Source: Branchiostoma floridae (Eukaryota > Chordata > Leptocardii > Amphioxiformes > Branchiostomatidae). From it: 64,000 nt of DNA. The notes below the pieces were generated by a model that was not told the DNA's origin, did not search any database, and worked only from the letters and a program-made list of their open reading frames with translations. The position numbers and the translations under genes were made by a program. The stretch is taken from contig NC_049979.1 of assembly GCF_000003815.2 (NCBI RefSeq), positions 17,220,493 to 17,284,492 on the forward strand. The letters run 5' to 3'. Positions 28,201 to 62,000 of the stretch are shown one piece after another; the first letter of the stretch is position 1; every line of letters starts with the position of its first letter.

Positions 28201-31200
28201 TGCCTCTGTGTATGAACGTTTTACATTGTGTCTGGATGTTTGTGTTGTTGTTCATAGTTTCTGGATACAATAGTAGCAGAGTGTAAGGAATTGAGTGGGA
28301 AGATGGTGTCACCCCAAAGGTCAGACTTGTGGGAATTACAGAAAGGAGAGTTCAGAGCCGGTGCAACTACTCATTTATCAGACATGGCAGACATTCCAAG
28401 TCATTGGGTCAGAGGAGCAGGCTACATATTCACAAGGAGGTGTTATTTTGATGTTTGATTACATGTTTTCACAGATACATATTTTCCATATGCTAGACAC
28501 ATTCACTAAAGAATGACAGGAAGGGATCAATGGACACATGTAATGTTAATCCAAAGGTTACAAAATGTATTTGTACACCATAATTAATAAAATACAATCA
28601 AATAACACTATAAACTTTAATATGTGATATCAAATATCACTATAAACTTTAATATGTGATATCAAATAACACTATAAACTTTAATATGTAATATCTTTGA
28701 ACTCTTGTTAAATGTTGCTTTTTGTGAGGCATATCCATTTTATTTATTTATTTGTTCTGCTGTATACATACAGCCAGCAGGGCTGCCCAACTAGCCATAC
28801 TGGCTATTGCCAAGGGCTAACCCAGGGAGAGAAGTTATACATGTTACATGTTACAAATACAATTTGCTGCAATAAACATTGTTAATATAAATCACTAGCA
28901 TTAACTTACATTGTATAAGCAAAACGGTTACAAATTCACATCATATACATTTATATCTGTACACATGGAATAATCACATTAGTTCACAGAGAATGGATCT
29001 CCGAGGGAGAGCCAGGCTTTGGTTTTGAATAGGGGTGGGTACCGGTACAGTGTACCGGTACAAAACCGGTTTTTCTTATTGGACCGGTCCAGAAAAACCG
29101 GACCTGAAAAAGTCAGCTGGACCGGATGTTGAACCTATTAGATAATGAACAGGTTACTTGATCAGGCATTCACCCTTTTTGGCGCTTACCAGTCGAAAAA
29201 CAAGAAATGCTTTTAAAAAAAGCTGTGCCTTGCCGCGTATTTTATGTTATTTTGGTAAGTTAGACTAGATTCTACGCTTAAAAAATCCCGAGTTCCACAT
29301 GTCGCCCCCCTCCCACCAAAGTTCCTACATACGGAAAGCTTTGGTGACTTCTCCAGGTGCCAATCCAGTCCCAAATCTTCTTTCAGACAATACAAGCTCT
29401 ATCAAGGACATTCATAGTCACAAATGTCTTTAAAAGGACTAAATGTACTTACCTGGCTACTAGCCCCCTAGTTGATATTGTTGCTATCTGCACCTGTTAC
29501 GAGGATGAACTGAACTGAACTGAACTGCTATGTGCAAAGAGCGACACCTAGCAACTTCAGTAGGAAATGCAGCAAAAATCCCCGAGTGTACTAGGGGGAT
29601 ATTGGAAATTTACCTCATTATCATAATGTATGTCAGATGAATTATTGGCACATTAAACAGGTTTTGTAAAACGTTTGGACCCACAATGAATATGCATTAT
29701 TTTTGAATACAAAATAAGTTCCTTCTGATGCAATTTGTGATCTTTATATAAACATGGTGAGTTAAAGCGTAGATTTATTACGCTGGACCACATACAGTAA
29801 CATGCGTCTATAAGAGAGTTTTAATACTCGCCTGGAATGTACCATTGTCTAACTAAGCCATGAAACTCGGCAAGGAAAGAATGGCCTTAGGAAGGGGCTT
29901 TGGAAGGGCTGGGTTAACAGGTCCATCCATTGAACCAAGGAGCTTTTATCTGATAAAAGCTCCTTGATTGAACCATGGAAGAAATCCAGCGGAAGGCCTT
30001 GCCGCTGCGCGGCAGGGCAAAAATAACAGGAGCGAAGTAGAGTAAAGTTTATAGTCATTTCTAAGAAAGTTTGCCGTCAATCGCACAGAGGCTATTAGCC
30101 TTGTAGGATTTTGGAACGCCAGTTTGAGTCGAATACTCCACAAAACAGATTTCTTTGTAGTGAAACAGACCACTGTTGTGAGTACAGTCGATTCACAAGT
30201 TTTCAAATACTAGATCAGGTCCAGGTTCAGGTCCGGACCTGGACCTCATCCTTTGGACCTGAACCGGACCTGGACCTGAATTTTCTGTACCGGTACCCAC
30301 CCCTAGTTTTGAAGGATGATAATGTGGTAGCTGTTTGGGTTTCGAGTGGAAGGTTGTTCCATAACTGAGTGGCTCTGACTGAGGAAGAAGGTTTTCTGGG
30401 TTCGTGCAGTTTTGGGAATTGTGAGGAACATCCATCAGGTATCATAACACAGAAAAGGCACTATGACAATCAGTAATCTTAATGTGTGATTATATCTTGT
30501 GCATTCTATGGTCTAATATAAGGAAGGAAATGTCATGCCACATTAGCTTCAGTGCTCCATGTGTCACGGATGTGTGTTCCATGGTATCCCCCATGGGCCA
30601 ATCATCTTTCCACATATATGCCGTGCTCATCTGTTAGCTTGTTATTCGTTTAACATGAGCTTTTTAAAACCCACAATATCTGATTCACAACTTCAGTGAA
30701 ACAACTGTATTTGTGATAGTCTCAACTAGCATGATACCAAATAAAATCTAATGGTTTAGAGTAAACATATCTTTTGAACAAACTTCACAAAAAAGGTCTA
30801 GGATAGATTTTTACTATAGGTTTTAATCAGTTATGATTTCACCAGTTGGTATAGCCTGACTATGATGTTGGTCTGACTATACATTTTACCAAATCAATTT
30901 TGATTGCTGTACATGTATGTGCATGTGATTTGGATATCCAACATAAATAACAAAACAGGGCGTACAAATACATACATTCAGACCAAGCTTACATACTGTA
31001 AATGCATTTCAGTTTGCTTTTGCAGGAATCTAATTTTGCGCCAAAGAGAAAATGGAGTGTTCACAGTGGTTTTGAATCCACAATAGTGCTAGTCATATAC
31101 AGTATATGACTGTACCATTGCCTTTACAGACCCCCAGTCAGAAACCACCTGCTAGCAACTGGGCAGAACAGTCGCTTTCAGTAGTACTGATATGTGATCA

Positions 31201-33313: not shown

Positions 33314-36113
33314 GTTCATCACTAACAGTCCTAGGGTGGGAGGAGCAAGCAGTTGTACAGGCATGGTACCAAGATCATGACTGGACCACCGGGAACTTTC
33401 CCTGTAACAATCCTGATGTTAAGAGTTAATGTTGTCCTAGGATGTTCAAGGATGCCCCTGTTGTCACTTGAACTTAAGTATACTAGGATCATGTTGCTAT
33501 TGTTTTATAACAAGTTGTTGTGTTTTATTACTGAAATGTTTTAAGAGGCTTTTACTTGATATTTTTTAACCAAGTTTTAACATAGAAGTCCAGAATGTTA
33601 TCCGTTTGGCCATTTTAACCACTGGTTAGTTCTACCTCTGATTATGTAAAGACTTTTAATGTGTAATGTCATTTAACTTCAATTCTCATAATTCCACCGG
33701 ATGCCGTGACACCATCACATGAGAAAACATGAATTTAAGCTGATTTAAAGAGATGTACCAATATAGCACCAGTAATCCTGAAGTAGACACGTCAGATATG
33801 CAGGTGTTCAATCTTGAAAAGGCCTCTAAACATTTATTTTCTTATATGTGGCAGTATTAAGGAACCTGGTGGAATTATGAGAGTTGATATTATCTAATCT
33901 GAGACTGTCTTAGTTTCTGATTTTGAACTCAAAATTTTGTGGTTTCTGCTTACTTCCATCTTCACTTCTGAATTGGGGGAAAGATTTCTACTTAACTTCT
34001 ATGGTTTCTTGTTGGTCCAGAATATACCTTCTTGCAATGGTACCAAGCCTGCTTTTGGCATCCAAGTGTGAGAATGGTGATGAGTTATATGTCATCGAGT
34101 GTAAAAAGTAACATATCAAATAGCAGTTCATGTTTATGCTGCTTGATGTTGGTCAGGTAAATTGTACAGGATTTTGAACAAGAAGAAATTTTGACTGCTG
34201 CATTTTTTAATGTACAGAGATTGGAACACTTGAAGTCAGTAAATGGTCTGCAGGGGTGACCATAGTAAATGAAGCAAGGATGTATTGTATATATAGATAG
34301 CCTGTAAAATGTTAAAATCTTACAGATAATGTACCTACTGTCAGAGTATCCATATTTTAGATATAAAATATCATCTTTAAACAAAGTGCCATTGTGAGGA
34401 ATTTGCTGTGAGGTATTTTGAATTTTGTACATGGGCTATTCATTGATAAAATACTCAAGAGCATAAAATGTAAATATGCTGTGTTTTTTGGAGATGTATA
34501 TTTTGCATGTATTTTCATGGCTAGAAGATACTCAATTGCAAGTTCCTAGCCATCAAAGTTGGTAAAAGTTGAACCTTCATACAAGTGAAATGGTATATGA
34601 ATGCTTGTGTGCAAATTTTATAACTGCAGAGAGGCTTGCTCATAGCTTGTCTTAAGTCATAAAAAAATCTAAATGTATACACAGTGCCACCTAGCAGGTC
34701 TCAGAATCAGCACATGTACCTTTGCATATCAAGTCTTGTTTGGTGGTCAGGCACACGTTTCCGTCCAACATTAACATTTTCATAAGCCAATATTGATACC
34801 ATTGCTACAATCTATCTTCAGATGCACTGTTCTGTCTTCTGTGACATAAGCTCAAATAACGTGTTAATGCTTCGCTGTTCTAACAAGTACCAAGGAGGTT
34901 AAAGAATCACTTTCTTTAACCTCCTTGCAAGTACTGTACAATGTACTGTCAATACACGGAGGAAATCAATCCTCTTGCTGTTATGTATGCCAAAAAGGCG
35001 AAGGCAGTCTAGAAAGGAGGGTGACATATCAAATTCTATCTGAAATGCATCAATACATGTACTTTATTTTTTTATGCATCTTGTTATAGGCATGAAACGT
35101 AGTATTGTACTACGTGTTTAATTGCCATAATCATACAAAGCATACAAGTAAGCTAATGGCAACCATATTTTTCTGACATATGTCTGCAGTTCTCACAGTA
35201 TTTACAAGGTGGCCTCGATGGACAGTCACCACCTGTACTGCCACCTGTGCCTGATGTTCAAAGGGTGCTAGCTGCCAATTTTCCTGTGTTCACCTACAGT
35301 AGCACTGCTAGGATTTTGTTAATGATGCTGGATACAATCAAGACATCGGTTTTAAAATGTGCTATTATGTTTTTAACTGTGTGACAATTCCTTTTGTACA
35401 AATGGACAGTGAGTAAATGTTGTTGACGTTGTATGTCAACCTAACAGTGTGACATGTGGTCTCCTGTTTTCTAATTGAATCTCCTGACTACTTGTACCTT
35501 ACAACAACACACAACAATGGGCTGCAGTAAACAGTACAGAACATTTCTAGTTGCCCTACGTGAATCAGATCCTGTCTGTTTTACTTGATTGGTATGTCTT
35601 ATCTGACCAAATTGATACATTTTATCACCTACACCATTACAATTTATGATTTATAATATAACATCTGTTTGGATTACCAGGAGGTAAAAAATAGATCTGT
35701 GCAAAAATCTCACTTAAGATACATTTGACCAAATTTACAAAGTTGATCAAAGACTATAAATACCATTCATTAAAATGTGACAATAAGGGGAATGTATTAC
35801 TTGTAACATAGCTTCCACATTACACTCAAATTGCACAAATTACTTGATAAATTTAAGCCCTTAAAGTCATCTTGTATGTACCCTACAATCTTTTTGTTTA
35901 GAGTCAGTGAATTATAAATTCTTCATTATTGTTTAGCACATTGTAGTAGCAGTTTGGCTACCAATTCTCTATTGGTTATGGCGTTAGGAAGCGGGGCAGA
36001 CGGTAACATTCCTTATCACTCCTTCGCATGCAGTATCCTACAGCAATGTCATTTTATGTCCCTCTTCAGCATTAGGCAACAACAATCATAATCTGTCATA
36101 AATTTAGAATAAA
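33314..36113 (+). other. MOK 3' UTR and intergenic DNA up to a poly(A) signal
   Basis: No coding region is seen. The first canonical AATAAA after the MOK stop is at 36108-36113. An ATTAAA variant lies near 35769, so the true UTR end is uncertain. A 37-bp palindromic insertion lies at 34891-34927. Confidence 0.45.
34891..34927. mobile_element. Ultra-short palindromic insertion (37 bp)
   Basis: Arms of 16 bases (CAAGGAGGTTAAAGAA and its exact reverse complement) enclose a 5-base loop, TCACT. The 7-base direct repeat CAAGTAC flanks it at 34884-34890 and 34928-34934. It lies within the probable MOK 3' UTR, where it would form a hairpin in RNA. Confidence 0.85.
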
Positions 36114-36527: not shown

Positions 36528-38153
36528 CTACGAGCTGCTAAGGAACTCCTTGAGGATGCCTGGCACCTCTGGTTCCTGGTAATCCTTGACAATGAAGTTC
36601 TTACCATCATGGGCACCTCGGACCATGGCTGACAAACCTGGAACATGATACAGAGAATGAGGGCTGAATGCAGATCTAGCCCATTTAGTGTACTTTCATT
36701 TGATGATGTAGGGCCGCTGTAACCCTTCATAAACAGTCAGGTGCTTGTTTTCTTCTCTGATGTATTTGTACAGATTTTATCAAATCTAAAATCTATAAAC
36801 TGGCAACTTTAAACAGAGTAGTGACATAAAAATGTAACCTCTTCTAACACCCTAGAAGGTTAACTCACTTTGGAGAGCTCAAGGCCCAACCTAATGTCTG
36901 GACTGTCATCAAACACAGCCCTACTCCTAGAGCTGCTAATTTTTCCATACTTCTTCATGGCTACTGTCTAACAACAGAGCCTTATATATCCCTTGCATAG
37001 ATGTGGAGAAAAAAAAGCTATGTAAGGGAACAGACTTACCTTTGCCATCATCAGGCCTGTACAGACACAGAATCCTTTTCTTCCATGCCACTGCTCTCCC
37101 AATCTCATATCCTACTCCAAGTGATGGCTGGGTCACCTCAGCAACCACAACTAAAATTATAACAGGGTACCACAGTGGTAACATTGAAACCTGTGGGCTA
37201 GCTTGTTTCAACAAAGCTATGACCAATGTGGTCTCCCTACCCTGTATAGCATCAGGTAGTAGTATTGTACAAGTCTGAACTTTCAGTTCCAACATGTAGA
37301 AAATAGATCTGAGAAAGATAACCCTCTTTTCTTCTTGAATGCCTAATAACTTTAAGACATCATCATATAGCTGATGATGCAATTTACAAATATCTACCTA
37401 ATATCAAGGAATCAGTTCTTACCATCTGACTCTTCCAGCCATGCCATGTCCTGTGTGTGTATAGCCACATCATCACCTGCAGAGTAGTGATAGAATATCA
37501 AGCCTTTGAAATGTATCATAAATGAGAGTTAACAATTACATATTGAGCAGGAACAAGCACATCACCAGCAGCATCACTTTGCATAATGATGGCGACAGCT
37601 GCTAGATTTTTTCTTATGGTTATTGGCATCCATCTGTCTCTTCAGACAATGGTAGGTAGGCAGTAACTTGCCGTCATGTGTTAAGCAACCTGTTTTTATA
37701 GCCGGCACATGGATTTTTCAGGTGAAGGAGGGGTGTGCACTTCCTTCTCCACCCTCTCATCTACTGACGCAAGAACTGCATGCCACATGTAAGACAGCCC
37801 ATGGCAGATGCAGCTTTGTTGTTCATAGTATCCGTCTTCTATGAGGACTTCCAACTAAGGATGTAAGGGGTTCCTCCTACCCCTGACTCATGTCTGAATG
37901 CTAGATGTTTAATGTTAATTACATGTACTTCAGTTAAAATAAATAAAAATGTTATATATATTTGCCAATACACAGTATATATATTTATTAATATATATTT
38001 GACAATACCTTCAATATGTTTGAGAATGGGCTCTTTAAACCCTACATGTTCAGTCAGGACAGTCCCATAGGCCTTCAGCTGTTCAATGATCCTGCTGTAC
38101 AGTTCTGCATCACCCCGGCCTCCACGGATACTGCCACAGAAGTAGATCTTCAT
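36528..38153 (-). CDS. DNPH1: 2'-deoxynucleoside 5'-phosphate N-hydrolase 1 (DNPH1/Rcl), four coding exons
   Basis: The enzyme cleaves the N-glycosidic bond of deoxynucleoside 5'-monophosphates, acting in nucleotide-pool clean-up. Coding exons on the minus strand: 38153-38009, 37476-37423, 37150-37040 and 36637-36528 (stop TAG at 36530-36528). All junctions are phase 1 with GT-AG sites. Translation gives about 139 residues: MKIYFCGSIRGGRGDAELYS (the phosphate-binding FCGSIRGG strand), TVLTEHVG, then HTQDMAWLEESDVVVAEVTQ with the catalytic Asp, PSLGVGYEIGRAVAWKKRIL with the catalytic Glu in GYEIG, and GLSAMVRGAHDGKNFIVKDY before a short C-terminus. It is slightly shorter than human DNPH1 at the N-terminus. 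The first coding exon is preceded by a good acceptor (CTGTTTTCAG, exon start 38164), so an upstream exon exists that I could not place; extra N-terminal codons there are possible. Confidence 0.94.
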
Positions 38154-38194
38154 GGTGATTGGTGCTGAAAACAGACTATTATTATTACCTGATG

Positions 38195-38214
38195 CAAGGA
38201 GGTTAACCTCCTTG
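38195..38214. mobile_element. Ultra-short palindromic insertion (20 bp, perfect palindrome)
   Basis: CAAGGAGGTTAACCTCCTTG is a perfect 20-base palindrome with no loop. The direct repeat CCTGATG flanks it at 38188-38194 and 38215-38221. It is the smallest member of the family and lies 31 bases upstream of the DNPH1 exon 1 acceptor boundary, near where the branch point would be expected. Confidence 0.85.
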
Positions 38215-38377
38215 CCTGATGATACCTGATGATTCATAGGTGAAGAACTTCAAGAAGGCACATCGCCTGTAAGGTCACCCTCCAAGTATTATTGGACCTG
38301 AGTCACCTGATACTCTTAGATTAGAACTTTTGAGTTTCTGGTTGAAGTGGTAGGGGCAGTAAAAGCACAATGTGGTA

Positions 38378-38752
38378 TAGCCCAGGCCTGGACGCTATGA
38401 TATATCATGTATCATTGAAACTCTGGACAGAAGCTGAAGAAACCGCAGTGCACGAATGAGCTGCTGAGGGTCACGTCGGGGTCAGGCGGAAGCCACGGAA
38501 CAGACAACAACAATAATCTGCAGAAGATGGCGGCTCTTGTAATAGAGCTTTGTTGTTTCAGGTCCTGCCGTGGATTACCTTTGGGCTTCTGGAGTTTTTT
38601 TTTTCGCCCGCCAAAGAAGGTACGGGAATTGGGAAGGTAGGGAAAGGACGAGTCCGGCCCGACTAGCAAGAATAAAGGCCGGAGGAACAAAAGTTGGATC
38701 CGGGGAACGGGGTGAACCTGGACGCTATATCATAGCGTCCAGGCCTGGGCTA
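38378..38752. mobile_element. 375-bp Mutator-like MITE with 25-bp TIRs and 9-bp TSD
   Basis: The terminal inverted repeats are 38378-38402 (TAGCCCAGGCCTGGACGCTA...) and its exact reverse complement at 38728-38752. A perfect 9-base duplication, AATGTGGTA, flanks the element at 38369-38377 and 38753-38761. A 9-bp TSD is typical of Mutator-like elements. The interior is unusually GC- and CpG-rich and includes AAGATGGCGGCT (a YY1-like initiator) followed by an open frame, MAALVIELCCFRSC..., and a possible donor, AAAGAAG|GTACGG. That could be captured promoter and exon sequence. It sits about 210 bases upstream of DNPH1 coding exon 1, in the presumed DNPH1 5' region. Confidence 0.9.
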
Positions 38753-39631
38753 AATGTGGTAATACTGTCCGTTACCGTACTACATTTTCGATCTCCAACT
38801 CTTTAAAAAGCTGCGCTGTGTTGGTTGGCAATCCCACTTCTGGGTCAAAAGGTCAGCTTTTGAATCCTGGCTGCCTGAAGGAGTTCCTGAACCACACTAA
38901 GTCACTGGTAGGAGCTACTAACGCTCAGGTAGGACGTTGTCTCGTCCAGTGTTTAAGGAAGGCAACGCCTTATCTATTAGTAAGAGCAAGTTATTTATTA
39001 ACAGGATCCCAATATCAGAGAAAGGTATCTTGAAATCTGCTGGCCCAAATCCACACCTTCCATGAAAGACTACTTGAGCAAATGCATGTAACGTTATAGG
39101 AAAATGTGTTACAGCACGTGGAATTAATTAGACTGCCCTAGCACTTTCAGTTTCATCCAAGGCTCCCGAAAAACACACGTAAACCCTAGGCCCCTGGCGC
39201 GCCACCTCGTGCTACTAGAAATTTATGTCTAGAATAAATGCGTATTTTACAGCACCTGACCTGCATTTCAACTAAGAAAGAGGGAATGACAGAGTACACT
39301 ATGACTTATCTAATACTAACGTTGTGTCAAAATCTGATTCTGATAGATCACACACCTTTTAATGCCCTGTGTCGCGTTGATATCTTCTGACTTGTCGGAC
39401 TTCTGGAGTTTCCCGCCAAGTGAATGACCTTTTCAACTTTGACCCTAGTACAATATGAACTGGCGCCCTCTCCCGACATGGCGCGGAACTACTAGATTTT
39501 CTGGTGACGTTCGTCGCGTCGGGATAGCAAGATTCGAAGTTACTATTAAATACTAGACGGCCAAGATAAAAGAACAACAGCGAAGAGAAGGAACTGTCAT
39601 ACATAAATACTTTCACTGGGAAGGTTATGTT

Positions 39632-39749: not shown

Positions 39750-40160
39750 ATTTTTACGTTCTTGTGTCTGTGTGTGCGCATTCTGTCTGTCTGTTGTTGT
39801 TTTTTGTTTGTCCGTTTGTTTGTTCGTTCGTTTGTGAACAGCATAACATGTCATTAAAGTGGTCGCGGATGGATCTTATAATTGTATGTTAGCAAAATCA
39901 AAAAATGATATCATTTCGGCCCTATGGGATTTCTGTTCTAAGATACTGCATTGTAAATCAAGCAAATCAGGGCCTTATTTGCATAATTCATTACCAAACA
40001 TAGTGTTATTTGGCCATAGAAGATCATTATAAACCAATAATTTATGTAAATGAGGACATTATTTGCATTATCAGTGAGAAGCCTTCAGGATATGTAATTT
40101 GTATTACACGGTTAAAACAATTTGGCACAGGCATAAGGTGGCAGAACTCTAGTCCGACAC
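39750..40160. repeat. Diverged copy of the GT-rich/TTTGCATAAT dispersed element
   Basis: A GT/TTTG-rich start near 39765-39835 is followed by AT-rich DNA with AATTTATGTAAATGAGGACA and TTATTTGCATAATTCATTAC, ending near CAGAACTCTAG. The same order of motifs occurs in the element at 59956-61070 (TTTGCATAATTAATGAGG, AAATGAGGACTTAATTTGC, CCGAACTCTAG). They appear to be relatives of one repeat family, this copy shorter and decayed. Confidence 0.55.
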
Positions 40161-43766: not shown

Positions 43767-43782
43767 TGGGAACTAGAGAAAG

Positions 43783-46700
43783 ATGTACACAACGATGATG
43801 ACCTCACTACCTCCTGTATCCATGGGTGTCCTTGTGGTCTGCCTGCTACTGGTATTTCAAACAGCACAGTCCTGTCCTGGCCCGTGCAGATGTGAGGGGC
43901 ACAAAGTATACTGCAATTCCGTCGGACTCACTACTGTGCGCTCAGGAATTCCTCACGATACCAGGATTCTCGACTTAAGGAATAACGTAATTACCAGTCT
44001 TGGTGACGAATCCTTAGAGAACTTAACCTCACTTGTATCACTAGATCTCAGTCAAAACAAGTTAACCGAGTTCCCCAGAGAGGCACTGAAATGGATGTCC
44101 ACCCTTTCACGTCTCCACCTTGACGGTAATGCCATTGGAACCATTCCGCCCAATGCATTCTCCGCACAGCGCAACCTTCGAGAACTGACGCTGGGTTCAA
44201 ACCGGCTGACAGAGGTTCCTGTTGACGCACTGACGTCGCTGTCCAAGTTGAGGCGCCTAGCCCTGAACGAAAATGGCATTATGTCCATCCCAAACAACGC
44301 GTTTAGAACACTGTCCTACCTGAGACTCCTTGTCCTGTGGAATAACTGTCTGGGGGACATACGACCGCATGGTTTTCAGGGGCTTTCACGGGTTTCTACT
44401 ATTGATCTGTCTCGCGCATGTCTGACAAAGGTTCCGTCAGAAGCCTTGAAATACGTTCCACGTCTGACCAGCCTCCACTTAGCCCACAATGAGATCACGT
44501 CATTGTCAGACGACGCTTTCCCCAACGTCCCAAAGCTCAGAGGGCTGACATTGAACCACAACAGGATCGGCAGCATCAGCACGCACGCGTTTCGCGGGCT
44601 GGGTCGACTGGAGTTTCTGAATCTACAAGAGAACAACCTAACCAGAGTGCCCGACGCCTTCAAGCACCTACCCAGCCTAACCACTCTGATGTTGAACCGG
44701 AACGCTATCCGGACTCTTTATCCGTGGGACTTCAGGGCCCTGCAGAGGCTCACAAACCTGTATTTGGCCTTTAACGGTTTTACGACGGTCACGCCTGAAG
44801 TGTTTTCGGAGTTAGCGAGCCTGGAGACGCTGGACGTTAGTGGATTTTTTAACTGCGACTGTCGCCTACGGGGTTTCAAAGAATGGATTGAGACCACCAT
44901 GGTGAAAGTGGAGCAGGACCTTTCTTGCCTGTCCCCACCACCCCTGCAGGGACGACAACTGCGCTGGATTTCCAGGAGTTCATTGTCGTGTGGAGTACCA
45001 GACACTGGCCCTCCCCCGATGCCTCTGCACTGCCCGGTGTACTGTTTATGCGAAGACCGCCAAGTCTCCTGTAACAACGCGCAGCTTACAGGTGTGCCCA
45101 GTGATATCCCAGACGGAGCGATTAGTTTGCAACTGTCCAGAAACCTGATAACTACAGTCAACAGCGACATGCTACTCCGACTAACGGACCTGCAGGACCT
45201 TGAACTGAACAATAACCAGCTAGATGCTGTCCCGGTTAAATCCTTACACCACCTTAGTCAACTGTTATCCCTGGGCTTGTCAAGTAACCGATTGACAGAT
45301 GTACCCGAACGTTCGTTTCTGGGATGTCCCAACTTGTTACGGCTGGACCTGTCGCGCAACAACCTATCCTCCGTCCCGAGTGAGGCCCTTGTTCCTCTAT
45401 GGCAGCTGCACACTTTAGACATAAGCAACAACATCATCGAGACGCTCGGCAGGGAGGCCTTGTCAGGACTTGCTCGCTTGCAAGTTTTGGTACTTAACGG
45501 TAACTGCTTCCGAAACTTGGAGGAGGACGTTCTGTTACACGTGCCAAACCTTCGCCGCCTGCACCTGGAACGCACCTGTCTGCGGTCTGTGCCATCAGCC
45601 GGCTTGTCAGGTCTGAACCGTCTCCAGCAGCTAGATCTGTCCGGTAACCAGCTCACATCTGTCCCGCCGGGAGCGTTCAAAGGCATGCCCGAACTCAGAG
45701 GCCTCGATCTAAGCGAGAACGCAATTTCTTCCATCGACTCTGCAGCTTTTCATAACCTCCCCCGCCTGAACACGATAACATTGAATCAGAACAACCTCAG
45801 GTTCGTGCCTCGGGAGGCCTTGGCTACCCTGACGACATTAGCAGCCGTCGATCTCAGCAGGAATAAGCTGCGGGAGCTGGACAGCCGGGACTTCTCGGGC
45901 ATCAGGGGGGACCTGACCCTCGGGCTCAGCTACAACAGGATTGAGACAGTGGACGCAGAGGTGTTATCAAGTATTGCATCTTTGAGGTGAGCACATCTCT
46001 AGCAATTCAATTATTCATGAGAAATCCACATTTTCTTTGCTTCCGCCTGTTTTGTTTCAGCCTCCCCAGTATGACCAAATTTTGCAGCAAGGGATTCGAT
46101 GTCGCAAAATAACCTATTTGTTCGTAATCATTCTAGTTGTCCCGATGTCATGGTCTTATTAGAATTATGACTTTCAATTATTCACAATTTTTGCCTTATA
46201 TAACCACAGAATACTTGTTTCCATTTGCTCAGACAAGTCTACCTCCAGGGAAACCCGTGGGCGTGCAACTGCCAGTTACGTGGACTGAGAGAGTGGATGG
46301 ACGACAGCGACACTCTACCTAGTTCAATAGGTAAGACCACACTGGAGTACAGATGCACTTTGAAATGTAGGATACAGGAGGATGTTTTCGGAAGAGACGT
46401 CCTATATCTTATAAGTTGTGATGGACATTCCATCCTTATACTTAAACCTAAGCTTATACTTATGCCAAACGTCCGGAGACCAATTGTTTGTAACACTTAG
46501 AACTTCTTTTTTTCAAGGATCTGCTGTTGAGAGAGATGTGACATGCGACAGCCCTCCAAACCTATCAGGACAGGCAGTGATTGACGTCTCTGCAGACGAT
46601 CTGGTGTGCCCGGAAAATGGAAAGCCACCTCCTTTTGAGACCTACGATGACAGCAATGGCAAGGACCAAGAAGGTAACCCGGACGAGTGTCCTAAACAGT

Positions 46701-49672
46701 GCCACTGCAGACAGTCGGAAATCAGCTGCAGAAACAAGGCGATCACGGCGGTTCCTCACAACATCCCGAAGAGCACAACGTTTCTTGACCTTGGAGAAAA
46801 CAAAATCGACAACATTCAATTGCTCCATTTTTTCAAATTACAAAACCTGAGGACTCTGGTATTGAGAGATAACAGACTATCAGACTTCCCATTGGAGGCA
46901 CTGGAGTCTCTGCGATCTCTACAAAAGCTCAATATGGAGAATAACGACATTCATTCCATTCCGCCGGATGCCTTCACGTCCCTCCTCCAGCTACGCGAGT
47001 TGTCACTGGACGCGCACAACCCTGAGAGTTTCTCCTTAGGACAGCTCGAACCGCTCAAACAACTCCGAAAATTGGTCATCAATGGACAAGGTCTGCCAGA
47101 AATTCCCGCACGAGCTTTCTATGGACTGTCTCGCCTCCGCACACTGGTGCTGCGGTTATCTTGCGCCACGGTCATCGACGGTCGGGCGTTTGACGACCTC
47201 GACAACTTGAGGAAACTGGACATAAGCGGAACTTGCATTGCCGATGTCAGCGAGTTTGTAAAGACCCTAGCTCAGGCTACTGCCCTAGAATCACTCATCC
47301 TAGCTGAGAATGGAATTAAACGAATCCCTAGAGCGCCATTCCTACCCATGATCAACTTGCGTTTCTTGGATCTGAGCAGAAACGGTGTGGAAAAAATTGA
47401 CGCCGAAGCATTCCGCGGTATATCCCGACTGTTGTCCCTCACTATGGACGACAATCTTCTAAAATCTGTTCCGTCGGAAGCTTTTCACCATCTGCCTAGT
47501 CTTAGGGTACTGAGCTTGCGCAACAACTCTATCAAAGTGGTGAGGAACGAGGATTTGGTTCCCCTTATGAAGCTGTCAGAACTTCATCTTGACTCCAATC
47601 ATATCAGATCCCTGGGCAGGAAAGTCTTCAACGAACTGGAGGATCTAAGTTCTGTCTCCATATCCAACAACCCGTTTGAGTGCGACTGTGGACTGAAACA
47701 CGTGAGAGGATCGCTAGAGGAATACACGTTCGGTATAGGACTAGAGGTGGAAGATATGATCTGTGCTGGTCCAGACTTTCTAAGGGGCAAGAAGATCAGA
47801 ACCTTGTTAGAAGAAGACTTTGTTTGTGGAAGTGATGAACAAAACAAACGAGCACAAATTCTTCTTGAAGCAGAAAAGACTGGGAACATTTGTCCAGATA
47901 AATGTGAATGTAGGGAGACGGAAGTAAACTGCAGAGCACGCAGTCTCACAGAGTTCCCCGATAAACTTCCGCGAACCGTAACGGAACTTATCTTGTCAAC
48001 CAACCACATCACAGACATTCCCCAACACGCTGTCTCTGGACTGGATAGACTGCAGTACTTACGTCTGAACAACAACCGTCTAACGTCTGCCCCGTCAGAT
48101 GCCCTGAAGGGTCTACCTTCCTTGAAGCGTCTTGACCTCTCTGGAAACAACATCAACGGGTTCGCAGACGACGCCTTTAGAGATCTCGGTAATCTGACAT
48201 CACTGTTGCTGGCAGAGAACAACCTGACGGAAGTTCCTCATTCAGCACTCAAGCCGCTCTCTCGTCTCCAGGAGCTATTTCTGGGTACGAACAACATCAG
48301 GAAGCTCACAAAGTCACCATTCCCTTACCTGAAAAACCTCCGTTTCCTTTCCCTTTCTGGGAACTGCATGAAGATGGTGGAACACGACGCCTTCAACAGA
48401 CTACACAACCTCCTCTCCTTGGATCTATCAAGTACGTCTCTAAAACATGTGCCGTCCAACGCGCTGTCACACCTAGGGCAGCTTCGAACCCTGGACCTCT
48501 CCCAGAATGACATCCGGTACGTCCACGGTGGTGCCTTCCGCGGACTGGAGAGGCTGCGGGTGCTGTACATCGCCAAGAACCGCATAGGGGCCATCCACAA
48601 CAGGGCTTTTGAAGGTCTGGTCCATCTCACAGCCATCTCCCTGTTTGACAACAAGTTGAGGAGGATACCTGGGGCTCTGCAGTCACTTCCACTGTTGTCA
48701 CAGGTGAGCACTTCATATCTAGATATCTATGTGATTGGCCACCACTTCGTCCCTCAATAGCGAAAGCATTTTAACGCATTGCTCAACATTCCTCACACCA
48801 CCGCTCAATTTCGTTTCAGGTGACTATCTCAAGAAACAAGCTGCGTCAGATCCGGGGCATAGACGTCCCTCGCCTGGCCGGCATGGCGACCTTGAGCCTG
48901 AGGGAAAACCGCATCGACTCCATTGATCCGTCCGTGTTCTCAACGATTTCTTTCTTGAGGTACAGATATTTGTATTTTGTACGGGCTAAAAATATTGTTT
49001 TCTAGTTTTGAGCTCTTAAGTTATGAAAAAGTAAATCCATAGTTTACAATATTATGTGTGCTGCTGGAGATAAGCAAGGATGCCGCGTTATGAAATCACA
49101 AAAAGTCACGCACCCCGCTGACAGCAACGGGTACTGCTTTGTATGCACATGTATGTGGAAGTACACTTCAGCATCAAGGAAAGTGCCAAGTAGCATATGT
49201 GCTTAACAAAAGATAGGAAAGTCAATAACTTGCACTCCATGTTTAAATTCCCAGCCACATAGACCTGGACAGTAACCCATGGCGGTGTGACTGCCACCTG
49301 CGTGGCCTGCGGGAGTGGTTAGAGGATCACGTGGACACCATCAACCCGCGCCTCCAGCCAACATGTGCCGGCCCCACCAACCTACAGGACAAGCAGCTGA
49401 CCGACATCCTGCCTGAGGATTTCACATGCTCCAACCAAGACGGCTTCCTGTACTTTTACCGGTACCTGACGACCAGGGAGACGCAGGACGACCAGCCAGC
49501 AGCGCTGATGAGAGCGGCACCTGACGGTAAAAAGGAGAAGTACACGCGGGAAGATCTGTATGCCTTTCACCGGAGGATGCAGCGCATCATGGAGCGACTG
49601 GCAAACATTCGCAAGTACCTCAAGAAAAGGGGTAAGATGGCAAAATCAATAACCACCGGGACAATACGTTAG
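43783..49672 (+). CDS. Secreted protein with four LRRNT-LRR-LRRCT cassettes (about 1681 aa)
   Basis: Five coding exons: 43783-45986, 46233-46330, 46518-48703, 48820-48959 and 49255-49672 (stop TAG). They sum to 5046 bases, exactly 1682 codons. The start lies 16 bases after an acceptor; a hydrophobic stretch (MGVLVVCLLLVFQTAQS, residues 14-30) looks like a signal peptide. Four units follow, each with a cysteine-rich N-cap, about 11-13 leucine-rich repeats and a C-cap. N-caps: CPGPCRC (about 31), CPVYCLC (417), CPKQCHC (825), CPDKCEC (1226). C-caps: NCDCRLRGFKEW (357), NPWACNCQLRGLREW (about 744), NPFECDC (1152), NPWRCDCHLRGLREW (1550). A charged helical tail follows (DLYAFHRRMQRIMERLANIR). No membrane segment, EGF, Ig or laminin G domain was seen. 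Four cassettes recall Slit, but Slit's are shorter and carry EGF domains. An extracellular binding role is inferred; there is no clear orthologue name. Confidence 0.9.
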
Positions 49673-53978: not shown

Positions 53979-54005
53979 CTGAAGAAAAAAAATGATGACA
54001 GGATA

Positions 54006-54350
54006 NNNNNNNNNNNNNNNNNNNNNNNNNNNNNNNNNNNNNNNNNNNNNNNNNNNNNNNNNNNNNNNNNNNNNNNNNNNNNNNNNNNNNNNNNNNNNNN
54101 NNNNNNNNNNNNNNNNNNNNNNNNNNNNNNNNNNNNNNNNNNNNNNNNNNNNNNNNNNNNNNNNNNNNNNNNNNNNNNNNNNNNNNNNNNNNNNNNNNNN
54201 NNNNNNNNNNNNNNNNNNNNNNNNNNNNNNNNNNNNNNNNNNNNNNNNNNNNNNNNNNNNNNNNNNNNNNNNNNNNNNNNNNNNNNNNNNNNNNNNNNNN
54301 NNNNNNNNNNNNNNNNNNNNNNNNNNNNNNNNNNNNNNNNNNNNNNNNNN
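54006..54350. other. Assembly gap (345 N)
   Basis: A run of 345 N just upstream (in gene orientation) of the first visible transporter exon. The missing N-terminal exon may be here. Confidence 0.95.
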
Positions 54351-55998: not shown

Positions 55999-56091
55999 TG
56001 CCCCTTGTGGACTTTCTTCGCTACAGTTCAACATCTTGGCAGCATTTGCAGTACTAGTTACACAAACGTGGTCTTCCAAAATGGCGAAGTT
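55999..56091. repeat. Direct repeat copy 1 (partner at 57103-57195)
   Basis: It contains CTTGTGGACTTTCTTCGCTA, CATCTTGGCAGCATTTGCAG and TACTAGTTACACAAAC, and ends AAATGGCGAAGTT. The same string of motifs with scattered substitutions is found 1.1 kb downstream in the same orientation. Confidence 0.85.
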
Positions 56092-57102
56092 TTGGAACTA
56101 AAAAGATCTGAAATCCTGCCTCCAATAAAAGATTTCAAATGCTAGCATTAGTAGCATAACAATATCATTTTAACGAGACATACTGAGCTATTTTAAACAG
56201 CAGGGATGAAATGTCTATTACGCCATCAAACAAACATTTGTTGCCCTTTGTTGGATAGTCGTCAAACATCAGATCAATACGCCACAACACATCTTCCCAA
56301 CTTCACGATCGACAAGTATAATATCGTCTGCGGTCGGTCCTTTTCCATCAACCACTTGCACATAGCGGCTACTGGTGTTTGTAGTAAGCTTTCCGAAAGG
56401 CTTTCGCTAAATTTATCTCGGGTATCTAATCATTAACAAATAGTACAGTCCATGTAAATTAGTGTAAATTAATACAGTGTATCCATGCCATCTGCCAGAC
56501 TGGTTTCCCAAGCGTAGATTGGATGATAAATATGTGAAACATGTACATGTATGACCTCCATTAGAGAGAGAACCTAGAGAGGCTCCGAACAAGATTAGCT
56601 TCCATAGGAGAACCTCCTATATTGTCCATGTGGCCTAGGGTTATCATTTGTGAAGTGTACACGTACATACAATCACACCATATGTCAGTGACACGGTTGT
56701 AGTTTGCACGCTGTCGGCGGTCCAAAGGTCGAGCAAAGAACGTCTAACATATAACAGTGAAGTTAAATACCCGGCGAAAGTTTGTACACAGAGAAAACTG
56801 ACATGGCGACTGGCAAGAGAAAGCTTCTTGTCGTAATTTCAACAAGCTGTCGGTAAAACTCACTCTACACATATGGCTAGTATGTTGAAGAGATTAGGGA
56901 TGAAACCGACTAGCACTGCATAAAATGCTGGACGCCTGTGTCTTACTCTAAACACAGATCGTAAATTTTGAACAAATTCACCGATTAAACCATGTACAAC
57001 GTGCCAGGGGTTTCGTCACACAGGCTAGGTCGGAGAGAAGATAAAAACAAACAAACCCTAGGCTGAACGAAAACAAAGAGGCAACCTACGTTGCAAATAT
57101 TC

Positions 57103-57195
57103 TGCCGCTTGTGGAGTTTCTTCGCTGCAATTCGACATCTTGGCAGCATTTGCAGTACTAGTTACACCAACTTGGTCTATGAAATGGCGAAGTTG
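57103..57195. repeat. Direct repeat copy 2
   Basis: It contains CTTGTGGAGTTTCTTCGCTG, CATCTTGGCAGCATTTGCAG and TACTAGTTACACCAAC, and ends AAATGGCGAAGTT. It is the partner of 55999-56091. It could be a segmental duplication or two copies of one short dispersed element. Confidence 0.85.
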
Positions 57196-57791
57196 TTAGG
57201 AGTAGACCCACGGTAGACTCACGGTACACTGTGAAGGAATGAACCACAGACCAGTGGCACTTCGGCGCCGGAAATGTGCTGATGTGGGGTGATTGGGGGA
57301 TCCAGCTAACGCCGGCTGTGGGCGGAAATGGACTGTTCTTCGTCACAAGTCGTAAATTGTTCTCGCGCGCAGAGCTCCGTCCTGACGTTTACGACCTGAC
57401 TGACAAGGCACACATGGGGCTCCCCTGGCACGTGTGTTGTAGCAATGGTGAGATGGACTAGTCTCCAAGCAAACGTGTCAGCTTGGTGACGAAAGATATG
57501 AATTTGTCCAAATATAGGGATAAATAAGTTGCCATGAGAGTTCAGTCAGTCTTTTGCAGTCTATCCACCAGCTCACCCCTAAGCCAATGAGACATTTATT
57601 CCTATTACTTGGTCAAAGTACGCTATTACTTCTCGGACAGGTGGGAGTCTGATAAAGACCACTAAACTTACACTACTACAACTCTCGATTACTTCACTGT
57701 CGAACAACTGACAGGTAAATCATTGAGGCTCTTTTGTATTTCTTTTCCCATTTTGCCCTAGCCTGGTATCCAGCCGTAATATAGCTCCCGA

Positions 57792-57891
57792 NNNNNNNNN
57801 NNNNNNNNNNNNNNNNNNNNNNNNNNNNNNNNNNNNNNNNNNNNNNNNNNNNNNNNNNNNNNNNNNNNNNNNNNNNNNNNNNNNNNNNNNN
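57792..57891. other. Assembly gap (100 N, conventional size)
   Basis: Exactly 100 N, the usual placeholder for a gap of unknown length. It abuts the left arm of a long inverted repeat, a common cause of assembly breaks. Confidence 0.95.
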
Positions 57892-58467
57892 GCCACAAAA
57901 CATAGCCTGTTATCCAGCTGTATTATTAGAATAAGCCATCACGCCTCCATGGTGACCACCAGTTCAATACTTTCACGGTAGTTAGCAAGAGAAAGTTTTG
58001 ACACAGCGGTCACTACGAAGGATGGTACTCAGGCTACCGTATTATATCTCCGTAGTCTCTTCTCTCCCCTGCGGAGAAGAAACTCGGAAGATAAAGCGGC
58101 TGGATACCAGGCTAATTTTGCCCTCCTATCACTAGCCCCCTCTAGCCCTACGTGTAGACTTTGCAACTTACCCGTACACATGCATAGATCACCATTCAAC
58201 AGAGCAGATGTTTAGCTTGGTCCAGCTTGTTTTACGCGTGTTTTTAGCCTGGTACCCAGCCGCTTTATCTTCCGAGTTTCTTCTCCGCAGGGGAGAGAAG
58301 AGACTACGGAGATATAATACGGTAGCCTGAGTACCATCCTTCGTAGTGACCGCTGTGTCAAAACTTTCTCTTGCTAACTACCGTGAAAGTATTGAACTGG
58401 TGGTCACCATGGAGGCGTGATGGCTTATTCTAATAATACAGCTGGATAACAGGCTATGTTTTGTGGC
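57892..58467. repeat. Near-perfect 223-bp inverted repeat with 130-bp spacer
   Basis: The left arm at 57892-58114 and right arm at 58245-58467 are reverse complements with a single mismatch seen by eye (GGATACC against GGGTACC at the inner end). Each arm is bounded inside by TAGCCTGG.A.CCAGCCG and holds near its outer end the related TAGCCTGTTATCCAGCTG, so an arm looks like one MITE of about 210 bp plus shared flank (GCCACAAAACA). Because the identity runs past the MITE-like ends to the gap edge, duplication of one copy in inverted orientation is more likely than two independent insertions. Confidence 0.93.
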
Positions 58468-58559
58468 GAGTGTCTTCTAACTCCAATGAAATATCAATGT
58501 CCCACATTTCTGTCGAGAATTCATTTTGGTCAGTTTGACTGACCGTTTCTTTAACGCAC

Positions 58560-58589
58560 CAAGGAGGTTATTCCTATATAACCTCTTTG
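58560..58589. mobile_element. Decayed ultra-short palindrome (30 bp)
   Basis: CAAGGAGGTTAT... pairs with ...ATAACCTCTTTG, with one substitution in the right arm. The flanks ACGCAC and ACTGCAC are similar but not identical, as expected for an old target duplication. It is the least preserved of five family members in the window. Confidence 0.6.
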
Positions 58590-59011
58590 ACTGCACTAAA
58601 GATTGTACATGTACTGTATATGATATGTTATGTTGTTGTTTTCTTTCTTGCAGTCATGGTGTGCACGTTCATGTGTTTATGATAGGAGAATTCTAACTTA
58701 AATAGTAAACAGGAAAACACATTTATGGCACTAGAATTATAACTTAAAGATCAAACAGAAGACCATATAGCCATAATTCTTTCATTGAGGCAATAGGTAA
58801 CAATGCGATGCAGAATAGCTGTAGCTACCAGGGTAAGAAGCGTCCTTGAATTTCGACTGCATTATTTTTGGTTCCGCTTCGACAGCAGAGAACAGATGTG
58901 ACGTCATCATCTCTTACAAACTTTTCCTTCTCCCGTGACAGGCGCGATGAGGTGTGGTCGCGCGTGTGTACTTTGAAAACAAAGAGAGACGGAAAACAAG
59001 GCCGGGCTGCC

Positions 59012-62000
59012 ATGACTACCCCGAACATGGCGACTACTACGGGTGGAAAGAAGAAATCGGCAACGGTGTCCGTACGTATAGACTACAAGTAAGCGGACTA
59101 TACTGGTCTATACTGTCTTCTTGGTAATAACATACTGAGCTCTGAAAGGTCTTGCATGACCGGAGAGCCAAAGCAAACAGTAATTGATAACTATCAAGGA
59201 CGTTATATCAGATATAACGTCCTTGATAACTATTAAATGTCACCAAGGTCGTTATGTCAGTCCCAGCTCAGATGCCTTTGTCCTGAACTATTACGGCCTG
59301 AGGGACATGCGGTTCTTCATGAAGAGCAATTAATCATGTCTTTGTTGTATTGATACTTGAAAGCACTGTCCAACTACAACCTTACGCAAATAGTATTCTA
59401 AACCTGTACATGTGCGCCTGTCTTCTATTTGTACAGTATGGCATGAGGTTTCCCGGGACGCTTCCGGGACCTGGCCCGACAACTCCGCCAGGCCATCCCG
59501 GGAGCGGAGGTGGTGGGCAAGATCATCAGCAAGCCAGGTGAGCTGTCAGAATGATGAGGTTCACACCTGTAAAGCAGCTGTCTCACGGGACGAAGGTCGA
59601 TCGGAGGACATGTCTGCGAGCTTTTAATAGAGATCGACCAACTCCGCACGGTCTAATCAAGGGGGATATGACCTCCTTGGTCTAATGTGATGAGGGTACC
59701 TTTTCAGGTGGAAAAGACGCTCGAGTCTTCTGAGCGATTTTTTAGAATTCGGATACCCGAAGCTCATCGACTATGTGACAGTGACGTAGATACCATGCTC
59801 ATTTCTTTCCGTTACTCAACAGTACTCAAGTTTGGAATTTGCAAATTATCAGACTGAGTGGCCACTTCAAGACGCGCTAGCCTATGTTCTTTCACTTACG
59901 AAAGGTTTTCTAGTGCCGGTTGTCATGGGAACCTCGCCTCTTGCCGAGAAAGTTTCGCCGAGGTTATTACCTCCATGAAAAAATGGAGGTATAGTTTTGA
60001 GTGTGTCTGTGTGTGTGTTTGTGTGTGTGTTTGTGTGTGTGTTTGTGTGTGTGTCTGTGTGTCCGCATATTTGTGGTCATCATAAATTGAGAACCTCTTG
60101 ATGGACTACGATGATATTTGGTATGTAGGTAGGGGTTGGGAAGACGAAGGTCAAGGTCAATTTTGGGCCCCCTGGTGTGTGGCCTTGGTACTGCAGCGCA
60201 ACTTCCGGTTTTGCTATCTCGGTGTTCTGAACATGCTATGGTCAAGATTTTTAAGCATTAGATAGCTCTTGTGCTCAGGAAAAAATTACGTAAGTTTGGG
60301 CCCCCTAGCGTCTAGTTTGGTAATAGCAGGGGCATTTTTGTCAAAAACTTCTGACGAGGATAACTCAAGAAGGGAACAACGGATTTTCATCATTTTTGGT
60401 ATGTAGGTACCTTAGACAATTTTGTACAAGATTAAATACTAATTATGCAAAAGAGGAGTACATTTGCATAATTAATGAGGATATTATATCATGGCAGTTT
60501 TTTCAATGTATCTCTTGTCCTGGATGTGATATGGTCTTGACATTTGGCTGGTAGATAGCTTGCAGTGTCATGACAAAGTGGTGCAGGTTTCAGCCCCCTA
60601 ACATTTAATTGCGGAACTGCAGGGGCGTTTTTGTCAAGACATTCTAAAGAGGATAACTGCAGAAAGGATTGATGGATTGGCATCATACTAGGCATGCGGG
60701 TACCTTAGGCAAATATGTTCATAATGATATACATTTTATGCAAATGAGGACTTAATTTGCATGATTAATGAGGAAATTGTATAATTCCATTGTTTTCAAT
60801 AACTGGACTTCAATAAATGTAACACATGTTAACTATGATAGGTGGAATATTAGCAGATACCAAATATGGTAATGAGGAACTTATTTGCATAATTTATGTA
60901 AAAATTGCAAAAACGCTTTATGATTAATAATGGGAATTTTATAATTGTGACATGTGTACGTTAGTCAATGATGAACAATACCATGCATAAATTATGTTAA
61001 TGTGCTAGTCAATTGCATGAAATTTACGAAAGCTCTAAATTTTCATGGAGGTATGAGGTCGCCGAACTCTAGTATTATCCTTGGTTTCACATAGCAAAGG
61101 AGTTGGTTCAGATGTGAGATTCCCATAAGTGAGGATTTTGATTTTTTTTTTGCATGGACGTCGCTTTTCTCTTTCCTCACTCAGGTGCCTTCGAGGTGTA
61201 CGTGAACAAGAAGCTGTACTACTCCATGCTGGAGAAGAGGCAGTTTCCTCATATCAACCAGGTAAGGCCACAGCAAGTAAATTTTATGGATGACATCCTC
61301 TGCAGACTGCAAAAATAATGAGATAGGGCGAAAAAAAACAAGATGGGTAGAAAAAACAAGATGGCAAATTTTCAAAATGGACGTTGTAACAAGACTTGAA
61401 GAGACAAAATATGGCATCGCAGTCAACAAGGCATTCATTCCTGTACTTAAGAAGTGCACCAGTGTAGCTTAAGTGACACTAGTGTGGTAGACTGGTATCA
61501 TTGACCATGTTGGCAACTTCACTCATAGCTTCCATAGTTGTGCCACTTTTACAACCAGGTTTTACAACTAACTATCAAGTTGCACCTTTGCAACTACAGT
61601 CAATGCTACAGAGTCTCTAGTGTCAATTCTACATTCAATGATTAGGTTACAACACAACCTTTACCGTTTTCGTCTATCCGGCCTTCCCTGAAGAAGAAAA
61701 AAAATTCTTGTTTTTTTTTCTGAAATCAGGCGAAAATTAATGTCATCCATAAAATTTACTTGCTGTGGCCTAATGGGATATTACTAGTAATAGAGGCATT
61801 TGAAGGAGGTAAGGAGAGGACTGCGAAGGTGGAACCAAGTACCTTTAAGGGCCACGACAATGACTTATACTAGTGGGAGGTAGCACTAATCGCTGGCAGA
61901 CATAGATACAGTGCAATGTTATTTCAGTGGGTATGTCACGCTGTTGAACTGAAGATAAAGGTGCAGTTGTCATCTACTGTATTATCTGTGGGCAATTTGT

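What the first reader, a model, noticed from the sequence alone, without database searches (positions are those of the whole stretch)
29929..59233. A family of 20-37 bp palindromes that behave like complete transposed units
Five palindromes share the ends CAAGGA and TCCTTG: 29936-29966 (31 bp), 34891-34927 (37 bp), 38195-38214 (20 bp), 58560-58589 (30 bp, decayed) and 59195-59225 (31 bp). Four are flanked by perfect direct repeats that differ at each site: ATTGAAC, CAAGTAC, CCTGATG and ATAACTAT. Loops are 1, 5, 0 and 1 base, so the clean units are little more than two terminal repeats joined head to head. Perfect 7-8 bp duplications imply insertion by a transposase rather than chance palindromes. 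A mobile unit as short as 20 bp would be far below usual MITE sizes. It might be the extreme deletion product of a longer element, or an insertion of a hairpin-joined end pair. One copy is nested inside a hAT element, showing insertion after that element arrived.
Basis: seen in the sequence. Interest (0 to 1): 0.85.

Follow-up and report, generated by a model that had tools for sequence, protein, structure and literature searches.

The report
Scars left by departed jumping genes
The short palindromes are most likely not tiny mobile elements but repair scars, left where a larger cut-and-paste transposon jumped out and the stubs of its two ends were rejoined.

Summary
Four listed palindromes have exact 7-8 bp flanking repeats, a fifth is imperfect, and I found a sixth (59658-59679). 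An end-blind scan of the window returned 5 units, all CAAGG..CCTTG. The window's genome has 2508 matches to a strict pattern, 2 to the reversed pattern. Of 41 such units I could hold, 26 have an exact 7- or 8-bp repeat and 11 a 7-bp repeat with one mismatch; of 123 look-alikes from prokaryote and viral contigs, 0 and 1.

The reading as complete mobile units is not supported. The same ends cap a family of 1.16-kb elements; the one copy read through has a 7-bp duplication. The palindromes are what remains when such an element leaves: in 17 scars of this family each flank keeps at most 20 nt (twice 21) of the end, and the stubs are joined. Unit 34891 is 20 nt of one end plus 18 of the other. Unequal and one-sided scars exist. 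Drosophila P-element excision, with 17-nt tails, gives the same kind of product. A P-type transposase is likely, but none was tied to these ends, and the parents of the other five window units are inferred.

The parts
29929..29973 (.). Scar 1: ATTGAAC + 31-bp CAAGGAGCTTTTATCTGATAAAAGCTCCTTG (29936-29966) + ATTGAAC; arms 15 nt, one central base
   Evidence: the identical 31-mer is at two other places listed, and the one of these that I hold (L155) has an exact 7-bp repeat
34884..34934 (.). Scar 2: CAAGTAC + 37-bp unit (34891-34927) + CAAGTAC; equals 20 nt of the right end joined to 18 nt of the left end of the 1157-bp element, sharing one base
38188..38221 (.). Scar 3: CCTGATG + 20-bp CAAGGAGGTTAACCTCCTTG (38195-38214) + CCTGATG; fits annealing of two stubs at self-complementary TTAA (inferred). 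Lies in a local ACCTGATGAT repeat
   Evidence: the same 20-mer with its own exact 7-bp repeat at L139
58553..58596 (.). Scar 4: imperfect 30-bp unit (58560-58589), flanks AACGCAC/ACTGCAC (5 of 7 match); reads as left stub 12, filler TCCT, right stub 14 with one substitution (inferred)
59187..59233 (.). Scar 5: ATAACTAT + 31-bp CAAGGACGTTATATCAGATATAACGTCCTTG (59195-59225) + ATAACTAT (8-bp duplication)
   Evidence: differs from scar 1 at three mirrored pairs of positions plus the centre
59651..59686 (.).
29030..30305 (.). Host element of scar 1: 1276-bp element (TAGGGGTGGGTACCGGTACAG ends, GTTTTGAA 8-bp repeats), hAT-like by form only; older than the insertion that left scar 1

Best explanation
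Each palindrome is the end-joining scar of an excised cut-and-paste DNA transposon. Shown: a family of 1.16-kb elements carries the ends CAAGGAGGTTAAAGAAAGAGAGGAGAG.. and CAAGGAGGTTAAAGAATCACAGGAGAG.. (7-bp duplication seen at the one copy read through), and scars consist of duplication + up to 20 nt of one end + up to 20 nt of the other + duplication. Inferred: the transposase cuts one strand at the element border and the other about 20 nt inside. The element leaves, both flanks keep a tail of about 20 nt of terminal inverted repeat, and the cell joins the tails after trimming, annealing at short complementary stretches (for example TTAA) or adding a few bases. The result looks palindromic because the two tails are inverted repeats of each other. 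Most likely the enzyme belongs to the P superfamily (about 0.65); that the palindromes are excision scars I hold at about 0.93.
For: 1) Full elements: one 1157-bp copy read through, GTTTGTG on both sides. Its left 200 bases have 40 scored matches of 57 candidates, 29 of them 97-100% identical over 198-200 bases and 4 more 98-99% identical over part. A degenerate 27-nt end pattern has 68 matches, from which I paired 28 copies of 1155-1170 bp (one 1233) by position. 2) Ceiling: in 17 scars assignable to this family the longest retained stub is 20 nt in 15 and 21 in 2, never more, although letters 21-27 (AGGAGAG) are the same at both ends of the element. Of the 41 units the longest is 40 bp (twice 20) apart from one composite of 43, while the pattern allowed 45. 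3) Unequal and one-sided scars with the duplication kept: 21+0 (L172), 20+4 (L170), 20+3 (L164, one mismatch in the duplication) among 19 fetched ends; about 0.12 exact repeats per 19 ends would be expected by chance at the rate. 4) Window unit 34891 equals 20 nt of the right end plus 18 nt of the left, sharing one base. 5) No CAAGG..CCTTG pair with an exact 7-bp repeat between 38 and 20,000 bp in the window. 6) Drosophila P-element junctions in PMC2895639 Table 1: 29 of 66 isolates are palindromes with loop up to 6 and both 8-bp duplications, including 14 copies of one perfect 30-bp palindrome and 2 of 37 bp with 16-nt arms and a 5-nt loop, the form of unit 34891. 7) Two shortened copies break off at a stub: L163's far end matches exactly 20 nt of the left end; C18:4619766 is 148 nt of the left end, 4 other bases and 21 nt of the right. 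8) 26 of 41 units with exact 7/8-bp repeats and 11 more with one mismatch, against 0 and 1 of 123 controls.
Against: Parents of scars 1, 3, 4, 5 and 6 were not identified; an end that shares 18 nt with scar 1 recurs at only 2 places. No allele with the element still present at a scar site was seen. No transposase was tied to these ends: PF12017 and PF21788 gave no match (their controls were silent too), and the 3 PF21787 matches could not be checked for CAAGG ends. 4 of 41 units lack the duplication. In one search, of 109 ends examined 47 lie in two-sided units with an exact 7-bp repeat, 53 have no exact repeat (some belong to units with one mismatch), and the lone one-sided case there (L159:3505, 19 nt) is within the 0.7 expected by chance. 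Five of the 17 scars join two left-type ends (L175, L177, L180, L181, L182), whose second parent end is not known, so their split is uncertain by a base or two. 13 of the 17 were chosen because 20 nt of the left end were present, so only the ceiling, not the typical length, is unbiased. L163 is only 88% like the 1157-bp copy and carries left-type tips at both ends, so it comes from a related subfamily. The value of 20 nt differs from 17 in Drosophila. Polarity of the tails is not visible in sequence.
Confidence: 0.93

Rival explanations
1. Ultra-short mobile units: the 20-37 bp palindromes themselves are moved as complete elements by a transposase that needs only the ends.
For: Perfect palindromes with duplications at many sites; some exact units recur (the 37-mer of 34891 also at C1:1060327, the 31-mer of 29936 at two more listed places).
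Against: Unequal and one-sided units with the same duplications; unit 34891 is explained by two different ends of a 1.16-kb element; many junction variants per end family; differences between the two window 31-mers are mirrored in both arms, not expected for copies drifting after insertion.
Confidence: 0.03
2. Insertion of released end pairs: two free ends of about 20 nt, cut from elements, are integrated together into a new site and then joined to each other.
For: Would also give duplication + stub + stub + duplication with a fixed stub length; static sequence cannot separate it from excision for two-sided cases.
Against: 21+0 and 20+3 scars are hard to make if both ends are needed for the duplication; shortened copies joined to an unextended stub fit excision with partial gap repair; P excision gives such scars at the donor site by experiment.
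Confidence: 0.03
3. In-place internal deletion of elements with long inverted repeats by hairpin cutting or replication slippage, without transposase.
For: Similarity of the two ends goes on past nt 20 (25 of the first 30 letters equal), and long inverted repeats are deletion-prone (recalled).
Against: Predicts a spread of arm lengths, including beyond 20 nt; none of 17 exceeds 21. Does not explain 20 nt against 0.
Confidence: 0.03
4. Excision scars, but of a transposase outside the P superfamily (hAT or another group) that also cuts far inside its ends. A sub-case of the best explanation, so the odds overlap.
For: No P transposase was tied to these ends; PF12017 and PF21788 gave no match; the stub is 20 nt, not 17.
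Against: The 17-nt extension of P is called unusual and atypically long among cut-and-paste elements (PMC7776569 passage); a mix of 7- and 8-bp duplications is reported for Galileo of the P superfamily; frames matching TNP-like_RNaseH_N exist in this genome (that this model stands for P-type transposases is recalled). That hAT enzymes keep no terminal repeat at the donor is recalled, not tested.
Confidence: 0.3

Closest known systems
End-joining products of Drosophila P-element excision (P{wa} assay, PMC2895639; passages and the section part with Table 1 read)
   Same: Duplication + terminal-repeat stub + terminal-repeat stub + duplication; the 37 of 66 isolates with at least 8 nt on both sides are 25-44 bp, mostly near palindromes; short complementarity, filler bases, unequal cases.
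   Different: 17-nt tails and 8-bp duplications there, in a Rad51-deficient (spn-A) background; about 20 nt and mostly 7 bp here; here a natural set across a genome.
P superfamily elements: Drosophila P, zebrafish Pdre2, Galileo (PMC7776569, PMC10983969, PMC2775673, PMC4168063; passages read)
   Same: Terminal repeats beginning CA (P, Pdre2), 8-bp (P, Pdre2) or 7-bp duplications (Galileo, with a few of 8), long cut inside the end (P).
   Different: End letters unrelated to CATGATG.. or CATACCTG..; no transposase seen in the one element copy read here.
hAT footprints (recalled)
   Same: Excision leaves both target duplications.
   Different: Terminal repeats are not retained and duplications are 8 bp (recalled); here up to 20 nt are retained and duplications are mostly 7 bp.
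Tiny dispersed palindromes of prokaryotes and organelles, such as cyanobacterial small dispersed repeats or yeast mitochondrial GC clusters (recalled; a look-up of the cyanobacterial paper by a recalled DOI was not held)
   Same: 20-40 bp palindromic inserts in many places.
   Different: Here a nuclear-type genome with a parent element and junction variants that explain them.

Membership tests
P-type excision scar | Both target duplications retained around joined terminal-repeat stubs | tested here: met
   26 of 41 exact, 11 more with one mismatch, 4 without; unequal and one-sided cases
P-type excision scar | Stub length capped by a fixed cut inside the terminal repeat | tested here: met
   Cap 20 nt in 15 of 17, 21 in 2 of 17, one end family only; the Drosophila value is 17
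P-type excision scar | Full elements with the same ends in the genome | tested here: met
   Met for the CAAGGAGGTTAAAGAA type; not shown for the other end types in the window
P superfamily of DNA transposons | 7- or 8-bp target duplications | tested here: met
   24 exact 7 bp and 2 exact 8 bp of 41; Galileo shows 7 and 8
P superfamily of DNA transposons | Encodes, or is mobilised by, a THAP/RNase H/GTP-binding transposase | tested here: inconclusive
   PF21787 3 matches with open frames of 767, 678 and 123 aa; PF21788 and PF12017 none (controls silent too); ends of these loci not readable
P superfamily of DNA transposons | GTP-dependent end pairing and cleavage | not testable with these tools
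   biochemical property
Ultra-short MITE moved as a unit | The whole short unit, both ends intact, is what transposes | tested here: not met
   Unequal and one-sided units; letters of unit 34891 and others derive from two ends of 1.16-kb elements
hAT element or footprint | 8-bp target duplications | tested here: not met
   24 exact 7 bp against 2 exact 8 bp of 41

The most novel reading that the evidence does not exclude
An unidentified transposase, P-like or outside P, cuts about 20 nt inside its ends, the longest donor stagger I can recall. Probably thousands of natural end-joining products of its excision (2508 strict-pattern matches) are kept in one animal-type genome, seem to outnumber the elements they came from, and form a natural archive of break-repair choices.
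Probability: 0.4. Interest if true: 0.62.

Novelty: new variant of a known kind. Interest (0 to 1): 0.5.

Why it matters
Scars record the cut geometry of a transposase without any biochemistry: the abrupt stop at 20-21 nt reads out the stagger. They also form a large natural set of double-strand-break junctions with a known starting sequence, so annealing, direct joining and filler addition can be counted in an animal-type genome. For annotation it is a warning: palindromes with target duplications can be what is left of an element, not an element, and counting them as MITEs would invent a mobile family.

Tried and rejected
Longer elements with the same ends in the window: none accepted. Searches (CAAGG..CCTTG, exact 7 bp, to 20 kb; relaxed ends, exact 7 bp, 80-9000 bp, window plus L128-L162) gave none; one search gave one 4.8-kb pair (1117-5939) with 3 mismatches in each end and one in the repeat, taken as chance. 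A target-site motif like that of P or Galileo: not significant with 4-5 sites (P = 0.11 for palindromy, 0.07 for GTANTAC). Transposase frames in the window: no transposase domain in the 15 open frames that I tested; shorter frames were not tested. Description in print: the searches listed no paper that by title or abstract describes these palindromes; where more papers matched than were shown only the first 20 were seen. Passages of seven papers were read (PMC5802833, PMC7776569, PMC10983969, PMC2775673, PMC2895639, PMC10027918, PMC4168063). An end sharing 18 nt with scar 1 was tested as a parent: only 2 places, so that parent stays unknown. Species: the gene content and a 513-Mb genome suggest amphioxus to me; this is a guess, no call names the genome.

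Rows dropped or ambiguous in the stub count: L137 (two readings), L162 (composite) and second-strand duplicates, including the L180 minus-strand row; L163 (a shortened copy), the five element copies and the unresolved L165 are outside the 17. The four units without a duplication (L128, L147, L157, L162) are counted in the 41. Of the 9 rows that labels one-sided, five are two-sided units with an 8-bp repeat read one base off, two are matches inside two-sided units, one (L161) is part of a compound unit, and one is L159.
Full report
Observation. The five palindromes are present with the letters given, four with exact flanking repeats. A scan that ignored the end letters found 5 near-palindromes abutted by exact 7-8 bp repeats, all CAAGG..CCTTG, one of them new (59658-59679); 20 block-shuffled windows gave 2 hits in all. 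No CAAGG..CCTTG pair with an exact 7-bp repeat was found between 38 and 20,000 bp in the window.

Genome-wide. The window lies in an unnamed 513-Mb assembly. The strict pattern CAAGGASSTT-N(0-25)-AASSTCCTTG has 2508 matches; the same pattern read backwards has 2. In the sequence I could hold (the window plus L128-L162, 35 loci around the first listed matches, all on contig C1) 41 distinct units gave 24 exact 7-bp repeats, 2 exact 8-bp repeats, 11 seven-bp repeats with one mismatch, and 4 without. Their lengths run from 20 to 40 bp, with one composite of 43, although the pattern allowed 45. Among 123 look-alike palindromes from 127 prokaryote and viral stretches none had an exact 7- or 8-bp repeat and one had a 7-bp repeat with one mismatch. 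The duplication is therefore a property of this family in this genome, not of palindromes with these letters. That all 2508 are scars is an extrapolation.

The parent element. One 20-nt end, CAAGGAGGTTAAAGAAAGAG, has 103 matches, 100 of which were listed. I fetched 20 of the 100: plus-strand ones on C1 to C4 (two on C1 already seen were left out), and three on C7, C11 and C13 picked because two hits lay close together there. Five start a common internal sequence, one is a 314-bp shortened copy with ATTTGAT on both sides (L163), 13 are scars (one with one mismatch in the repeat), and one is unresolved (L165). One of the five was read to its other end: 1157 bp with GTTTGTG on both sides. Its two ends are CAAGGAGGTTAAAGAAAGAGAGGAGAG and CAAGGAGGTTAAAGAATCACAGGAGAG, 25 of the first 30 letters equal. 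A degenerate 27-nt pattern built on these ends has 68 matches (letters shown for the first 20, one of which looks unrelated); by position I paired 28 copies, 27 of 1155-1170 bp and one of 1233. Duplications were checked on the 1157-bp copy and L163 only. The left 200 bases have 40 scored matches, 29 of them 97-100% identical over 198-200 bases, so the family was probably active recently. Comparing the listings by eye, 30 of the 100 listed 20-nt ends belong to element copies. The one copy read has no frame longer than 153 aa, so it depends on an enzyme made elsewhere.

How the scars are built. Fitted to the two ends, 17 scars keep at most 20 nt of an end (15 cases) or 21 (2 cases), although letters 21-27 are the same at both ends of the element. 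Combinations include 20+20 joined directly (L175, L181), 20+20 sharing one base (L171, L176, L179), 20+19, 20+18 sharing one base (window unit 34891; L130 is the same in reverse), 20+16, 20+13, 20+4, 20+3 and 21+0. In five of the 17 (L175, L177, L180, L181, L182) both stubs are of the left type; the second parent end is then not known and the split is uncertain by a base or two. The most unequal kinds are not palindromes at all yet sit between the same duplications, which a mobile-palindrome model does not predict; at the chance rate about 0.12 exact repeats per 19 ends would be expected. Two shortened copies show another outcome expected after excision, partial copying from one side and joining to the untouched stub on the other. 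L163's interior of about 290 bp matches the right part of the element at 88%, and its far end matches exactly 20 nt of the left end; its near tip is also of the left type, so it stems from a related subfamily. C18:4619766 is 148 nt of the left end, four other bases and 21 nt of the right end; its duplication was not checked.

Window units. 34891 is fully assigned. 38195 fits two CAAGGAGGTTAA stubs annealed at TTAA. The 31-mers at 29936 and 59195 differ at seven positions: three mirrored pairs and the centre; matched differences in both arms are expected if each unit is made from the two ends of one element. 59658 and 58560 read as unequal stubs with a few filler bases. These assignments, other than 34891, are inferred because the parents were not found (for one attempt).

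Comparison with what is known. In Drosophila, P transposase leaves 17-nt 3' tails on the donor, and Table 1 of PMC2895639 (Rad51-deficient flies) lists the joins: of 66 isolates, 37 keep at least 8 nt on both sides and 29 are palindromes with a loop of 6 or less, including 14 copies of one perfect 30-bp palindrome, 5 of a 32-bp one, and 2 of 37 bp with 16-nt arms and a 5-nt loop; the other isolates keep less of one or both stubs or have longer inserts. The form agrees closely; the number, 20 against 17, differs. P-superfamily elements make 8-bp (P, Pdre2) or 7-bp (Galileo) duplications, and Galileo in one species makes both. I saw passages of those papers, not whole texts. Membership in the P superfamily is likely but open: TNP-like_RNaseH_N (PF21787, which I recall as the RNase H part of P-type transposases) has 3 matches in this genome, two in long frames without stops, while PF21788 and PF12017 gave none (with silent controls).

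Verdict. That is a new variant of a known kind, useful for reading transposase cut geometry and break repair from a genome alone.

Noticed in passing
G000:C19:10311853-10312299(+), C11:17076605-17077051(-), C6:14994104-14994325(-): Three matches to TNP-like_RNaseH_N (PF21787), in open frames of 767, 678 and 123 aa; candidates for the enzyme, ends unread.
   Followed up: partly
L155:4153-4225: Two CAAGGACGTTACATC.. palindromes side by side sharing a GTTGAG-type repeat, as if one insertion and excision hit the edge of an older scar.
   Followed up: no
57892-58115 and 58244-58467: Perfect 224-nt inverted repeat with a 128-nt spacer, just beside a run of N; element or assembly artefact.
   Followed up: no
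183-230: 48-bp palindrome (23-nt perfect arms, 2-nt loop) without flanking repeat.
   Followed up: no
38377-38753: 377-bp element with 27-nt perfect inverted arms (TAGCCCAGGCCTGGACGCTATGATATA) and an ATGTGGT repeat.
   Followed up: no
60436-60477, 60729-60770, 60857-60898, 39951-39992, 40035-40076: Dispersed 42-nt palindrome-like repeat with ATTTGCAT and a GAGGA-like centre.
   Followed up: no
62741-62908 and 63782-63883: C-rich repeats GATCTCGCCCCCC in both orientations; sequence at 63893-63943 matches part of the element at 29030, perhaps a second copy cut off by the window end.
   Followed up: no
36936-37397 and 37839-38249 (-): Fragments weakly like a nucleoside 2-deoxyribosyltransferase (PF05014, E 0.0011 and 0.077, both below cut-off); by eye, scar 38195 would lie about 40 bp upstream of a possible start.
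   Followed up: partly
43777-45990 and 46415-48760 (+): Two long leucine-rich-repeat frames with LRRNT domains.
   Followed up: no
59015-59539 (+): Possible exons of a selenoprotein W-like gene with an in-frame TGA at 59444-59446; read by eye and recalled, Pfam found nothing in the 31-aa piece.
   Followed up: partly
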